Assembly: GCA_001552775.1 (NCBI GenBank)
Contig: KQ959253.1
Coordinates: 50,594-97,793, forward strand
DNA length: 47,200 nucleotides
Direction: 5' to 3'
Source of the DNA: Bacteroidales bacterium KA00251
GTDB taxonomy: Bacteria; Bacteroidota; Bacteroidia; Bacteroidales; Porphyromonadaceae
Shown here one piece after another: positions 118 through 47,200 of the stretch (the stretch's first letter is position 1; each line of letters opens with the position of its first letter). The position numbers were made by a program, and so were the translations under genes. A model generated the notes under the pieces. The model saw only the letters and a program-made list of their open reading frames with translations, ran no database searches and was not told the DNA's origin.

Positions 118-723
118 ATGAAGAATATTTATAAGACTTTGCTCGTATGCCTGCTCCTCTTGTTCGCTGGTCATCTGTCAGCGCAGCAAGTAGGGGCCAA
201 GGTCAATACGCTATATCTAGCCACCTCAACTCTTAATTTGGGTGTGGACTTTCGCATCGCTTCGCAGTGGAGCGGTTCAATCCTTTTGAGTTACAACTCG
301 TGGCAGTTTCCCAGTGCCCGTCAGGTGACGCTCTCCAATGGAGCTCAGGTGAATGCTAATCCCAAAGCGATGCACCTACTAGTTATGCCCGAGGTCAAGT
401 GGTGGCCCTGTAAGACTTTCCAGCGGCACTTCATTGGGCTGCATGGGATTTATGCTACCTATAACGCAGGTGGGTTGCCCCTCCCCGAGCAGCTGAAGAA
501 TCGTCGCTATGAGGGCAACCTTGTGGGGGTCGGTCTCTCGTGGGGCTACCAGTGGGCGTTTGCCAAGCGGTGGGGTGTAGAGCTCTCCCTCGGTGCAGGC
601 TACGTCTATACTCGTTATAAGCAGTTTGAGTGTGGTGCCTGTGGTACCCTCCTGTCGCAGGGTAGCAAAGGGCTCTTTGCTCCTACCAAGGTTGCGCTCA
701 ACATTATCTACTACATGAAGTAA
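118..723 (+). CDS. DUF3575-type outer-membrane protein, first visible gene of fimbrial operon
   Basis: Predicted 201-residue secreted protein. The reading frame is open further upstream, but the ATG at 118 is the better start because it begins a clear signal peptide (MKNIYKTLLVCLLLLFAGHLSAQ), with cleavage expected after SAQ. The mature part is rich in alternating aromatic and polar residues and ends in IIYYMK, as in small outer-membrane beta-barrels. The pattern fits DUF3575, a family often encoded at the head of Bacteroidota fimbrial loci. It precedes the DUF3868/OmpA gene by 14 bp, consistent with one operon. The family assignment is from recall of the family; a role in fimbrial assembly is inferred from context. 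Confidence 0.75.
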   Translation: MKNIYKTLLVCLLLLFAGHLSAQQVGAKVNTLYLATSTLNLGVDFRIASQWSGSILLSYNSWQFPSARQVTLSNGAQVNANPKAMHLLVMPEVKWWPCKTFQRHFIGLHGIYATYNAGGLPLPEQLKNRRYEGNLVGVGLSWGYQWAFAKRWGVELSLGAGYVYTRYKQFECGACGTLLSQGSKGLFAPTKVALNIIYYMK

Positions 724-7048: not shown

Positions 7049-8506
7049 ATGAAATGTAAACAAACAACTTTCATGTTACTCTTACTCGCCTCGATGCTCA
7101 CACTGCTCGTAGGCTGTAATAGGAGTACGGGAGCCAAAGAGCCAACCCACAAACAGGGGAAGCCCTCGCTCACCTTTACGCTACAGATGCCACAAGGAGA
7201 GCCTGTCACTTACCGCTCAGCAATACACGATGAGCCTGAGTGGACAATCAAGTCACTAACCATGTATCAGTTCAATGCTGATGGCTCCAAACTTCTCAGC
7301 ATTGACAATATTGATATGACAAAGCTACAGAAGACGGCAGATGCTGAGTATAGCTACACGAAAGAGTTTGCCGAGAATGAGGTCGGCACGACAAGTCGCT
7401 TCCTCTTTGTCGCTAACGATGAGATAGCAGATGTTGCTGTCGGAATAAGCCGTGCAGAATTTGAGCAGAAACTTATGAGCAAGCGGCTCTCAGCCGGCGG
7501 AACCTCAAAGGATATTCTTACAGGCTCTGCTCCCAACTACACCATTCCTATGTCTGGCGTAGCTAAGCAAGGCAATAGCGAGTTGATAGCACTTACGGGG
7601 ACCAACAAGGGAACCACCGTCACTCTCACCCGTGTCGTAGCTCGTATTGACATAGCCAATCACGTACCCAATCTGACCATCACGAAGATCTATATCACAA
7701 ACACTTATGACCGTACCACGACATTCCCTACTATGGAGGGTGGAAGGCAAACCTACAAAGCTCCTGCTGGTGCACAGAAGGTAACGATGAGTGCAGGCTT
7801 TGCAGAGCTCCCCAATCCCTTCACTGGAATTGCTGGTGTTGAGGGGAATGAGCTCAAGAAAGCTTTCTACCTCTACGAGGGTGAGCAGCCCGAAGTAGAG
7901 GCACAAAAGGCTGAAGCGACCACAATCGTTGTTGAGGGTAAACTAGCCAACAATCAAGATGTGAAGTATCTCATCCCCTTCACCCGTACGAGTGCGACTT
8001 ACAGTCCTGTAAATATTAAGAGAAACTACCTCTACAGACTAATCCTTGGAAATAATACCTCCCTAGAGCCAGGTAGCAAGCTGGTCTTTACTATTGAGGA
8101 TACACCGTGGAATACGATACTGCTCAATCACCATATGCCTCTCTTGGATGTAGAACTTGTGCATACTACAAATACTTCCAGCTGGAAGTTTGACTATGTC
8201 AATCATACTTTTTACTCTAAGTCTTTGGACGAATTTGAGTTTCGTATCACTAATCGGTTTAAGGACCACACCGCATACACGGTGAATCCGATTAATGCTG
8301 ACGCTAATCTGATGAGTTATGAGCTACGCACTGATGACGAGCACAAAGATGCTCAACTTAAGATAGACCTCCACAATAAGAATCAAAAATCTGACATGAC
8401 AAAACGAGTAGCGCAGTTTGAGATTTTCAGCGATGCTGCCCCAGAACTCAAGCGTATACTCACCATTGTCTACGATCCCGATTATAAGAATCCTGACTTT
8501 AAATAA
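7049..8506 (+). CDS. Fimbrillin-like lipoprotein A2 (second copy of duplicated cassette)
   Basis: 485 residues, paralogue of A1. The region 7078-7374 aligns without gaps to 3314-3610 in A1 with about eight base differences by eye, changing only one residue (GAEEP to GAKEP) in the shared coding stretch. Past that point the two proteins remain homologous (TLTRVVARIDIANHVPNL, IKRNYLYRLILGNN, IEDTPWN) but differ at many positions. It carries the same lipobox (LTLLVGC) and ends in DPDYKNPDFK. B2 begins 4 bp after its stop. Likely an alternative fimbrillin or accessory subunit; the sharp boundary suggests recombination or gene conversion between the copies. Confidence 0.78.
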   Translation: MKCKQTTFMLLLLASMLTLLVGCNRSTGAKEPTHKQGKPSLTFTLQMPQGEPVTYRSAIHDEPEWTIKSLTMYQFNADGSKLLSIDNIDMTKLQKTADAEYSYTKEFAENEVGTTSRFLFVANDEIADVAVGISRAEFEQKLMSKRLSAGGTSKDILTGSAPNYTIPMSGVAKQGNSELIALTGTNKGTTVTLTRVVARIDIANHVPNLTITKIYITNTYDRTTTFPTMEGGRQTYKAPAGAQKVTMSAGFAELPNPFTGIAGVEGNELKKAFYLYEGEQPEVEAQKAEATTIVVEGKLANNQDVKYLIPFTRTSATYSPVNIKRNYLYRLILGNNTSLEPGSKLVFTIEDTPWNTILLNHHMPLLDVELVHTTNTSSWKFDYVNHTFYSKSLDEFEFRITNRFKDHTAYTVNPINADANLMSYELRTDDEHKDAQLKIDLHNKNQKSDMTKRVAQFEIFSDAAPELKRILTIVYDPDYKNPDFK

Positions 8507-27918: not shown

Positions 27919-27963
27919 AAAAAAAGCAAGACCCTCTGACGAAGCAGAAAATCTTGCTTTTTT
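27919..27963. terminator. Strong bidirectional terminator, 3' end of orphan-repeat RNA
   Basis: AAAAAAAGCAAGA (27919-27931) pairs with TCTTGCTTTTTT (27952-27963); after a symmetric 3-nt internal loop on each side an inner stem TCTG/CAGA (27935-27938 and 27945-27948) closes a small loop. Oligo-T tracts occur on both strands. Confidence 0.85.
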
Positions 27964-27978
27964 GAGAAATTACTGTCA

Positions 27979-28008
27979 ATCTACTATAGTAGAAATTATT
28001 AAGTTGAC
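27979..28008 (-). repeat. Orphan Cas12a-type CRISPR repeat (30 nt)
   Basis: Read on the minus strand it starts GTCAAC and ends AATTTCTACTATAGTAGAT. The array repeat starts GTCTAG and ends AATTTCTACTATTGTAGAT. The distal 19 nt match at 18 positions; the middle is shorter by 6 nt and diverged. No second copy lies within 200 bp on either side. TGTCAA/TTGACA (28009-28004 and 27979-27974) flank the hairpin as an outer inverted repeat. Confidence 0.75.
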
Positions 28009-28045
28009 ACTCTCCAAAATCTATTTTGTGAAGACTCAACCTTTA

Positions 28046-28053
28046 CAAAGGTA
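28046..28053 (-). promoter_or_regulatory. -7 promoter element of orphan-repeat RNA
   Basis: TACCTTTG on the minus strand matches TAnnTTTG. The surrounding TTACCTTTGTAAAGGTTGAG matches the tRNA-Arg promoter region TTACTTTTGTAAAAGTTGAG at 18 of 20 positions. The -33 region (around 28074-28079, TGTTAG) is weak, with no clean TTG. Confidence 0.55.
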
Positions 28054-41946: not shown

Positions 41947-42993
41947 CTATAAAAAGTCTTTAGCGATCTGCATCGTTGCACAGTGAATACTACCATGCCA
42001 TTGGATAAGAGTGGTCGCCTCTACAGGGATGATCTTGTACGAGGGGAAAGCCTTCTGGAAGAGAGCAAGTACCTGTTCATCCAAAGTCTTTTTTCCATAG
42101 GTGGGTACAATGATTCCCCCATTAACAAAAAGAAAATTGGCATATGTAGCTGGGAGTAGCTCTCCATGCTCATTTTCAAGAGCTCCTACATCGGGTAGAG
42201 GAAGAAGTTCAAAGGGCTTCTCTTCCAAGTTTTTCAATGCTTTTACTTGCTTTTCAAGAAGAATAAGGCTTTTATAATTGGGGGATAAAGGATCACTCGG
42301 TGCTACGTAGGCTAAGCAATCCGACGAAACAAAGCGGACAATCGTATCAATATGTCCATCGGTATCGTCGCCTTCTAAAGGAGGGCAATCCACTTCAATT
42401 ATTTTTTTGACTTCAAGACTATCACGGATCGACTCTTTCAACTCGTCCTGTGTATAGCCTTCATTGCGATTGGAAGCCTCTAGCCAATAGCGATTAACGA
42501 GAAGTATTCCCTCCCCATTACTCTCGATACCGCCTCCTTCTAGAGCGAATCGTCTGTCCTGACGAGAAGGTGCAACATCTGGCTTGAAAAAGTCTTTATG
42601 AAGGAGTCTGTAGGTGACCTGGTTGTCGAGGTAAGAAGGGTACTTCTGTCCCCATCCATTGTAGGTGTACTGCACCAATTGCTTCCCGCGACTACTTGCT
42701 TTGCATAGAGGACCGTAGTCTCTTATCCAAGTGTCGTTGGTAGGAATAGGAATGAAAGAGACTGGATAATGTGATCCAGCAAAGCAACCTCTTGGAGGAT
42801 GCTCTTCCAGTTCCTCAGGGCAGATCACAAAAACAGGTTCAAATTTGGCAATTGCCAAAATCAACTCAATATATTGAGCGTGTGCTTGAGCTAAAAGAGG
42901 AGCCCAATCACTATGGCTATGAGGCCACACAAGAAGTACTCCTGCCTGAGGAGTCCACTCGGGTAATAAACCTTGACAACCTTTCTTATCCAT
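41947..42993 (-). CDS. aguA: Agmatine deiminase
   Basis: 348 residues from the ATG at 42993 (MDKKG); the longer frame of 16 more codons lacks family similarity. Conserved motifs: WPHSHSDWAP, NDTWIRDYGP, ALEGGGIESNGEG, EVDCPPLEGDDTDGHIDTIVRFV and the catalytic cysteine in WHGSIHCATMQ. Converts agmatine to N-carbamoylputrescine and ammonia; aguB downstream completes the route from arginine-derived agmatine to putrescine. A TAnnTTTG-like motif (43000-43007, minus strand) almost touches the start codon, so the transcript may have little or no leader. Confidence 0.94.
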   Translation of the reverse strand: MDKKGCQGLLPEWTPQAGVLLVWPHSHSDWAPLLAQAHAQYIELILAIAKFEPVFVICPEELEEHPPRGCFAGSHYPVSFIPIPTNDTWIRDYGPLCKASSRGKQLVQYTYNGWGQKYPSYLDNQVTYRLLHKDFFKPDVAPSRQDRRFALEGGGIESNGEGILLVNRYWLEASNRNEGYTQDELKESIRDSLEVKKIIEVDCPPLEGDDTDGHIDTIVRFVSSDCLAYVAPSDPLSPNYKSLILLEKQVKALKNLEEKPFELLPLPDVGALENEHGELLPATYANFLFVNGGIIVPTYGKKTLDEQVLALFQKAFPSYKIIPVEATTLIQWHGSIHCATMQIAKDFL

Positions 42994-43204
42994 ACTATAC
43001 AAAGTTAGTGACTTATTCTTTAATGACGGTAGTGTGTGCACAAGAAGAGCGCGGACATTTTGCTCAAAATGATCACGATCTTTTCAGCAAAGCTTAAGGA
43101 GCTTTTGTTTCCTTCTTTCCAAGAATGCCCCCTGTAGGTGAATATGCACCATTTTGCAGAGGTGTGGGTCTCTGTATGTACCTATAGGTTCTCTTAAATG
43201 TTGC

Positions 43205-46974: not shown

Positions 46975-47200
46975 AACTACAATAGTAGAAATTAAAATGG
47001 TAATCTAGACTTTTTGCGCGTGTGCGTTGCAAATCGCGTGATCTACAATAGTAGAAATTAAAATGGTGATCTAGACAGAAAGAAGATAACCTCTCGCAAG
47101 TTGGATCTACAATAGTAGAAATTAAAATGGTGATCTAGACAGGGGCAAGATATAGGCACCCACGGGGGATCTACAATAGTAGAAATTAAAATGGTGATCT
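46975..47200 (-). CRISPR. Type V-A (Cas12a-type) CRISPR array, distal end, cut by window edge
   Basis: Four 36-bp repeats: 46975-47010, 47041-47076, 47105-47140 and 47169-47200 (last one truncated by the window). Spacers are 30, 28 and 28 bp (47011-47040, 47077-47104, 47141-47168). Read on the minus strand each repeat begins GTCTAGAT and ends AATTTCTACTATTGTAGAT, the conserved Cas12a crRNA handle, so the array is transcribed right to left. The first repeat in plus-strand order has two base differences from the others, as expected for the oldest, leader-distal repeat. The leader and cas12a/cas4/cas1/cas2 are expected right of the window but are not seen. Spacer targets are unknown. Confidence 0.95.

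What the first reader, a model, noticed from the sequence alone, without database searches (positions are those of the whole stretch)
27919..28053. Stand-alone RNA gene built around a single Cas12a-type repeat, 19 kb from the CRISPR array
The minus strand has, in order, a TAnnTTTG promoter element, about 30 nt, a 30-nt repeat-like segment ending in AATTTCTACTATAGTAGAT, about 15 nt, and a strong T-tailed terminator. The final 19 nt differ by one loop base from the repeat of the type V-A array at the right edge, far beyond chance in 47 kb. Established: Cas12a recognises this hairpin and cuts just 5' of it; crRNA-like RNAs that direct Cas effectors to repress promoters, and solitary repeat RNAs that act as decoys, have been described for other systems. 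Inference: this locus may encode a crRNA-like regulator or Cas12a decoy located outside the cas locus, between tRNA-Arg and mnmE.
Basis: partly seen in the sequence, partly recalled or inferred. Interest (0 to 1): 0.85.

Follow-up and report, generated by a model that had tools for sequence, protein, structure and literature searches.

The report
Distant guide RNA for Cas12a self-repression
A small stand-alone RNA gene appears to load into the bacterium's own CRISPR nuclease and steer it to the promoter of the nuclease gene, so that the immune system would turn itself down; RNAs of this kind are known, but this one lies about 26,000 bases from the gene it seems to control.

Summary
The minus strand at 27919-28053 carries a Bacteroidota-type promoter box, one Cas12a crRNA handle (19 nt, one loop base from the array repeat), 15 nt, and a T-tailed terminator, among core chromosomal genes.

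In the held 1.86-Mb genome TGACAGTAAT occurs three times: in this RNA, once without a PAM, and once behind a TTTA PAM upstream of cas12a, 26 kb away. A weaker copy (TTTC PAM, 6-nt seed) lies 26 bp from it, over the predicted -7 box. Of 957 array spacers in 55 Cas12a loci, 0 reached 9 nt beside a TTTV in their own cas12a upstream region. Two other genomes carry the same design beside cas12a, with 15-nt and 9-nt matches.

Best reading: a CreR-type crRNA-like RNA. Cas12a processes it, binds its own promoter through a match too short to cut, and represses itself. The kind is known; the distance and the paired sites look new. There are no expression data, and no close relative was held to test conservation. 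A decoy role is less likely but not excluded.

The parts
28046..28053 (-). Predicted promoter -7 box TACCTTTG (TAnnTTTG type); start site expected near 28041
   Evidence: Sequence. The stretch TTACCTTTGTAAAGGTTGAG resembles TTACTTTTGTAAAAGTTGAG before the neighbouring tRNA-Arg. The consensus is recalled, no start site was mapped.
27998..28041 (-). Leader of the predicted transcript, unrelated to the 5' half of the array repeat
27979..27997 (-). Cas12a crRNA handle AATTTCTACTATAGTAGAT, stem TCTAC/GTAGA with loop TATA
   Evidence: Exact match, next best in the window are the array repeats; hairpin predicted
27964..27978 (-). 15-nt guide TGACAGTAATTTCTC; first 10 nt match a TTTA-flanked site upstream of cas12a, first 6 nt a TTTC-flanked site 26 bp from it (both outside the window, L011:7110-7133 and 7084-7107)
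27919..27963 (-). Intrinsic terminator: hairpin and run of 7 T directly after the guide
   Evidence: 19-bp stem predicted
46975..47187 (-). Leader-distal end of the type V-A CRISPR array (four handle copies in the window); array, cas2, cas1, cas4 and cas12a continue to the right of the window

Best explanation
A free-standing CreR-type RNA acting in trans. It is transcribed from its own promoter as an RNA of about 120 nt (inferred). Cas12a recognises the handle and cuts just 5' of it (established for Cas12a handles, inferred here). The complex carries a 15-nt guide, of which 10 nt (11 of the first 12) match a TTTA-flanked site upstream of cas12a (shown). A second site (TTTC, 6-nt seed, 9 of 12) lies 26 bp away in the same orientation, over the predicted -7 box (shown). 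So short a match should allow binding but not cutting, so the complex would block RNA polymerase and Cas12a would hold down its own expression (inferred). When array crRNAs or inhibitors occupy Cas12a, repression should ease (inferred from CreR).
For: TTTA-TGACAGTAAT upstream of cas12a; the 10-mer occurs 3 times in the held genome and only this site has a TTTV PAM; of 3 sites with TTTN and an 8-nt seed it is the only one with TTTV. Controls: 21 of 94,376 window 12-mers, the true guide included, reach a 10-nt run beside a TTTV in that 808-bp region; 0 of 957 array spacers reach 9 nt, 1 reaches 8. The same design beside cas12a in L117 (15-nt match behind TTTA, terminator straight after the guide) and L102 (9 nt behind TTTA), weaker in L097 (5 nt, 8 of 12). 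15-nt Cas12a spacers bind but do not cut (PMC11919711, passage). CreR autorepression is stated for I-B, I-E and V-A (PMC13131331, passage; PMC12737573, passages). Guide not followed by a further repeat, and capped by a terminator.
Against: No expression, binding or repression data. One genome only: no relative with this locus, and three family members with cas12a (G019, G030, G036) show no solitary handle within 2 mismatches. The promoter is a consensus reading, and an 85-aa ORF lies between the sites and cas12a, so that the sites serve cas12a is inferred. The second site is weak (about 1-3% by my own estimate). Repression with 15-nt spacers was weak or absent in human cells (PMC11919711). The original CreR paper was not read.
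Confidence: 0.86

Rival explanations
1. A Cas12a decoy (Racr-like): the solitary handle soaks up Cas12a, and the match upstream of cas12a is chance.
For: V-A Racrs exist and inhibit Cas12a of Moraxella bovoculi (PMC10651486, passages). Solitary handles are frequent in viral contigs: 79 handles, 6 with another within 110 nt. The TATA loop of this handle is also found in 10 viral stretches.
Against: The locus lies among core genes (recA, peroxiredoxin, tRNA-Arg, mnmE, folK, queA) with no phage gene recognised among the ones tested. A 10-nt PAM-flanked match is rare in controls. The solitary handle beside an integrase gene in G221 has no such match to its cas12a upstream region.
Confidence: 0.07
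2. A relic: the last unit of a decayed array or an old V-A locus, not expressed.
For: G022, which has no cas12a match, keeps a solitary TATA handle near two decayed repeats, so relics occur in the genus.
Against: The handle is intact while the 5' repeat half is gone; promoter box, handle, guide and terminator are in working order; no second handle in the neighbourhood; the guide matches upstream of cas12a.
Confidence: 0.03
3. An antitoxin of the CreA type: Cas12a with this RNA silences a toxin gene, perhaps the unassigned 85-aa ORF just downstream of the sites.
For: CreA RNAs have the same build and silence a toxin promoter (PMC12737573, passages). The 85-aa ORF (L011:6714-6971) lies between the sites and cas12a.
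Against: Cas12a itself is the next gene on that strand. The ORF has no Pfam or PHROGs match and no relative in the loci held. Toxicity untested.
Confidence: 0.04

Closest known systems
CreR, cas-regulating RNA of type V-A (Liu et al. 2023, cited in PMC12737573; original not read)
   Same: crRNA-like RNA with the cognate handle and a partial, PAM-flanked match to the cas promoter
   Different: Encoded about 26 kb from the target instead of beside the cas genes as in L117, L102 and L097; two sites in tandem
RacrVA, RNA anti-CRISPRs of phages (PMC10651486)
   Same: Solitary V-A repeat unit behind its own promoter
   Different: Chromosomal core-gene setting; guide matches upstream of cas12a
CreA of CreTA modules (PMC12737573)
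   Same: crRNA-like RNA steering the effector to a promoter by partial match
   Different: Target is upstream of cas12a; no recognised toxin gene
tracr-L of Cas9 systems (recalled, no call)
   Same: Natural RNA that turns the effector into a repressor of its own promoter
   Different: Cas9 and tracrRNA-derived; unrelated RNA

Membership tests
CreR (type V-A) | RNA gene with the handle of the host's Cas12a repeat, outside the array | tested here: met
CreR (type V-A) | Guide partly matches the cas promoter beside a PAM | tested here: met
   TTTA + 10 nt upstream of cas12a; controls. That this stretch is the cas12a promoter is inferred.
CreR (type V-A) | Match too short for cleavage | tested here: met
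   15-nt guide before the terminator, 10 matching nt; 15-nt spacers do not cut (PMC11919711). By sequence only.
CreR (type V-A) | RNA with Cas12a represses cas expression | not testable with these tools
   Needs expression or reporter data
CreR (type V-A) | Encoded beside the cas genes (typical in the cases seen here; not part of the definition in the review passages read) | tested here: not met
   26 kb between RNA and site
Racr (RNA anti-CRISPR) | Carried by a phage or other mobile element | tested here: not met
   Neighbouring genes tested are core genes; not every ORF of the window was scanned
Racr (RNA anti-CRISPR) | Inhibits CRISPR immunity | not testable with these tools
   Needs an infection or interference assay
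CreA (CreTA) | Guide matches the promoter of a toxin gene | tested here: inconclusive
   The only TTTV site with an 8-nt seed lies upstream of cas12a, but an 85-aa ORF of unknown function is between

The most novel reading that the evidence does not exclude
A phage-style solitary Cas12a handle was taken over by the chromosome and became a distant autoregulator with paired operators. Its TATA loop, seen in 0 of 1117 array handles but in stand-alone units of G022, G221 and viral contigs, would be a trace of that origin. Freed from the cas locus, it could also serve other promoters with weak seeds.
Probability: 0.15. Interest if true: 0.8.

Novelty: new variant of a known kind. Interest (0 to 1): 0.62.

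Why it matters
If true, RNA-guided autorepression of Cas12a occurs in Porphyromonadaceae and need not be linked to the cas locus, so surveys that look only beside cas genes would miss such RNAs. It also gives a simple genome test, a solitary handle plus a PAM-flanked seed upstream of the effector gene, that helps to tell self-regulators from decoys.

Tried and rejected
Rfam: of 6 matches with E up to 1 only the tRNA passed the gathering score. A search of 61 genomes (own plus 60 relatives) with 171 bases of the locus: 8 of 61 match, the own genome in full and 7 by 21-32 bases.

Conservation: 24 of 26 genus genomes have MnmE. In the up to 1500 bases downstream of it (three of the 24 shorter), only the own locus has tRNA-Arg and an exact handle; several others show only handle-like matches with up to 3 mismatches. 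G009 has mnmE and cas12a about 24 kb apart, but no convincing solitary handle and, in the stretches fetched, no other window gene at E 1e-10. In G007 queA, folK and mnmE stay together.

G003 has a solitary handle upstream of cas12a, but its best TTTV match is 5 nt, 9 of 12, which is within the range of controls. L097 is also weak.

Seed masking by the leader: seen in the fold from 28038, not in the fold from 28041 without the terminator, where the leader pairs with itself; there 376 of 2000 shuffled leaders fold as well. Dropped.

Strict pattern (exact handle, then six T within 24-54 nt): 5 of 57 genomes, 3 of 393 Bacteroidales, 2 of 26 further genomes; the own genome is in the first two counts, and G088 and G152 give the same place. 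Apart from the own genome, G095 (=L117) and G221, the matches are array members or ends (G082; G484; G088/G152, G100), and G478 has one full repeat with a repeat-like second copy. The pattern misses divergent handles such as L102. The last search covered 26 of the 80 loci and one search covered 50; the remaining four (L070, L071, L080, L128) were not given again: the first three are G019, G036 and G009, which were given, and L128 shares its assembly prefix with L096.

Rows dropped: one search screened 84 loci (79 with at least 300 bp upstream) but printed only rows with at most 2 mismatches or a run of 7; one search was given 72 loci, 55 with arrays, without most loci of short upstream sequence. 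One search covered 87 loci, three genomes twice (L070/L066, L071/L068, L080/L065); one search held L080 and L065 both. The 80 loci are the best 80 of 275.

Literature: searches. The original CreR paper was not in the listings. I found no paper describing this RNA or a distant V-A CreR in these searches; weak evidence of absence, as subscription papers are missing.

Full report
What is there. On the minus strand at 27919-28053 lie a TAnnTTTG box (TACCTTTG), a leader, a 19-nt Cas12a handle, 15 nt, and a terminator with seven T. The handle is one loop base from the usual array repeat; five handle matches with up to 3 mismatches occur in the window against 0.02 expected. The full array repeat is GTCTAGATTACCATTTTAATTTCTACTATTGTAGAT, and only its last 19-20 nt are shared. 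Folding supports the handle stem and the terminator. The stretch at the promoter resembles the one before the neighbouring tRNA-Arg, TTACCTTTGTAAAGGTTGAG against TTACTTTTGTAAAAGTTGAG. Neighbours are recA, a peroxiredoxin, tRNA-Arg, mnmE, folK and queA.

The cas locus. The window is G000:C8:50594-97793 of a 1.86-Mb genome in 34 contigs, 95% complete. Beyond the right edge, on the minus strand in order of transcription, come cas12a (1242 aa, five Cas12a-type Pfam domains), cas4, cas1, cas2 and the array. An 85-aa ORF without recognised relatives lies directly upstream of cas12a.

The decisive test. It does: TTTA-TGACAGTAAT at L011:7110-7123, 11 of the first 12 bases equal, about 437 bp before the cas12a start. 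A second site, TTTC-TGACAG at L011:7084-7093, 9 of 12, has the same orientation, and its 20-nt stretch covers a TACATTTG box that I read as the -7 element (the consensus is recalled). In the held genome the 10-mer occurs three times: in the RNA, at C8:62707 (preceded by AAGA, no PAM) and at the cas12a site. TTTN plus 8 nt gives three sites: two with TTTT, of which one lies in cas12a and one at C32:170688, and the site upstream of cas12a. The RNA gene itself has AGAT, no PAM, before the guide.

Controls. Of 94,376 12-mers of the window, both strands and the true guide included, 21 reach a 10-nt run beside a TTTV in the same 808-bp region, which holds 50 usable TTTV sites and 100 masked bases. 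Of 957 array spacers in 55 loci, each tested against the 850 bp upstream of its own cas12a, 0 reached 9 nt and 1 reached 8 (72 loci given). The chance of the second site alone is about 1-3% by my own estimate, so I treat it as suggestive.

Comparison. The best 80 of 275 Cas12a loci were fetched, and 84 loci screened for solitary handles whose guide matches the cas12a upstream region. Two cases are clear: L117, handle 217 bp before cas12a, 15-nt match behind TTTA and a terminator straight after the guide; L102, handle 163 bp before cas12a, 9-nt match behind TTTA. L097 is built alike but weaker, 5 nt, 8 of 12. G003 has a solitary handle without a convincing match. Three family members with cas12a (G019, G030, G036) show no solitary handle within 2 mismatches, so the RNA is not general in the family. 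The strict handle-plus-T6 pattern matched 5 of 57 genomes, 3 of 393 Bacteroidales and 2 of 26 further genomes; besides the own genome only G095 (=L117) and G221 were clearly stand-alone, G478 being a single repeat with a repeat-like second copy.

Mechanism. Shown: the anatomy, the PAM-flanked match, the short guide ended by a terminator. Inferred: transcription, processing by Cas12a, binding at the two sites, block of polymerase. Reviews state that CreR RNAs mediate autorepression in types I-B, I-E and V-A by partial promoter match (PMC13131331, passage) and respond to crRNA abundance and anti-CRISPRs (PMC12737573, passages). 15-nt Cas12a spacers do not support cutting, although repression by them was weak or absent in human cells (PMC11919711, passages).

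Rivals. A decoy is the main one, since V-A Racrs exist (PMC10651486, passages) and viral contigs hold many solitary handles: 79, of which 6 have another within 110 nt. Against it stand the core-gene setting and the target match. G221 offers a contrast: a solitary handle with a terminator beside an integrase and a repressor-like gene, in a genome with Cas12a, and no PAM-flanked guide match in the 6.6 kb around cas12a. A relic and a CreA-type antitoxin are less likely.

A caution about chance. When 64 distinct viral guides were tried on the cas12a upstream regions of all kept loci, 3 of 5184 pairs reached 10 nt or more, two of them through a guide that itself holds a promoter box. So a 10-nt match can arise by chance when many pairs are tried; here one guide was tried on one pre-named region.

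Limits. One genome; no close relative with this locus; no expression data; promoters by consensus; original CreR paper not read; that published V-A CreRs lie beside cas genes is recalled and seen here in three loci. Verdict: very probably a CreR-type RNA, unusual in its distance from the target and its paired sites.

Noticed in passing
L183 1499-1572 (G221:C32:13409-13482): Solitary Cas12a handle (TATA loop) behind TAACTTTG and followed by a terminator, beside an integrase and a repressor-like gene, in a genome with its own Cas12a; Racr-like candidate, guide without match at its cas12a.
   Followed up: partly
L219 (IMGVR_UViG_3300025154_002798), 292-310(-): Viral solitary handle between two copies of TCGTATATTTG; read as guide it matches TTTA-flanked sites upstream of cas12a in L071 (11 nt, at -61) and L143 (12 nt, at -473) and its own promoter. 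Could be a phage-borne cas12a repressor, or only a shared promoter box.
   Followed up: partly
L189-L198 and L204-L269 (viral contigs): 79 V-A handles with loops TATA, TATT or TATG, 6 with another within 110 nt; L197 has two in tandem, each behind a TnTTTGTTAAA stretch.
   Followed up: partly
window 27979-27997 and 87 loci: Loop TATA makes TCTACTATAGTAGA a perfect palindrome; 0 of 1117 array handles have it (three genomes counted twice), whereas the solitary handles of the window, G022 and G221 do.
   Followed up: partly
L117, L102, L097: CreR-like RNAs just upstream of cas12a; L117 is labelled Bacteroidales but its promoter-like boxes look sigma-70-like (TTGACA), so the bin may be mislabelled.
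   Followed up: partly
L069 5169(-), 5399(-), 7483(-) (G022): Solitary TATA handle and two decayed repeats in a genome without a cas12a match: likely remains of a lost V-A locus.
   Followed up: no
L064 2416 (G003): Solitary handle AATTTCTACTATGATAGAT 480 bp upstream of cas12a with no convincing target.
   Followed up: partly
L011 6714-6971(-): 85-aa ORF between the two sites and cas12a, without Pfam or PHROGs match or relative in the loci held.
   Followed up: partly
window 41947-43041(-): Gene of the Porphyromonas-type peptidyl-arginine deiminase family, PF04371.
   Followed up: no
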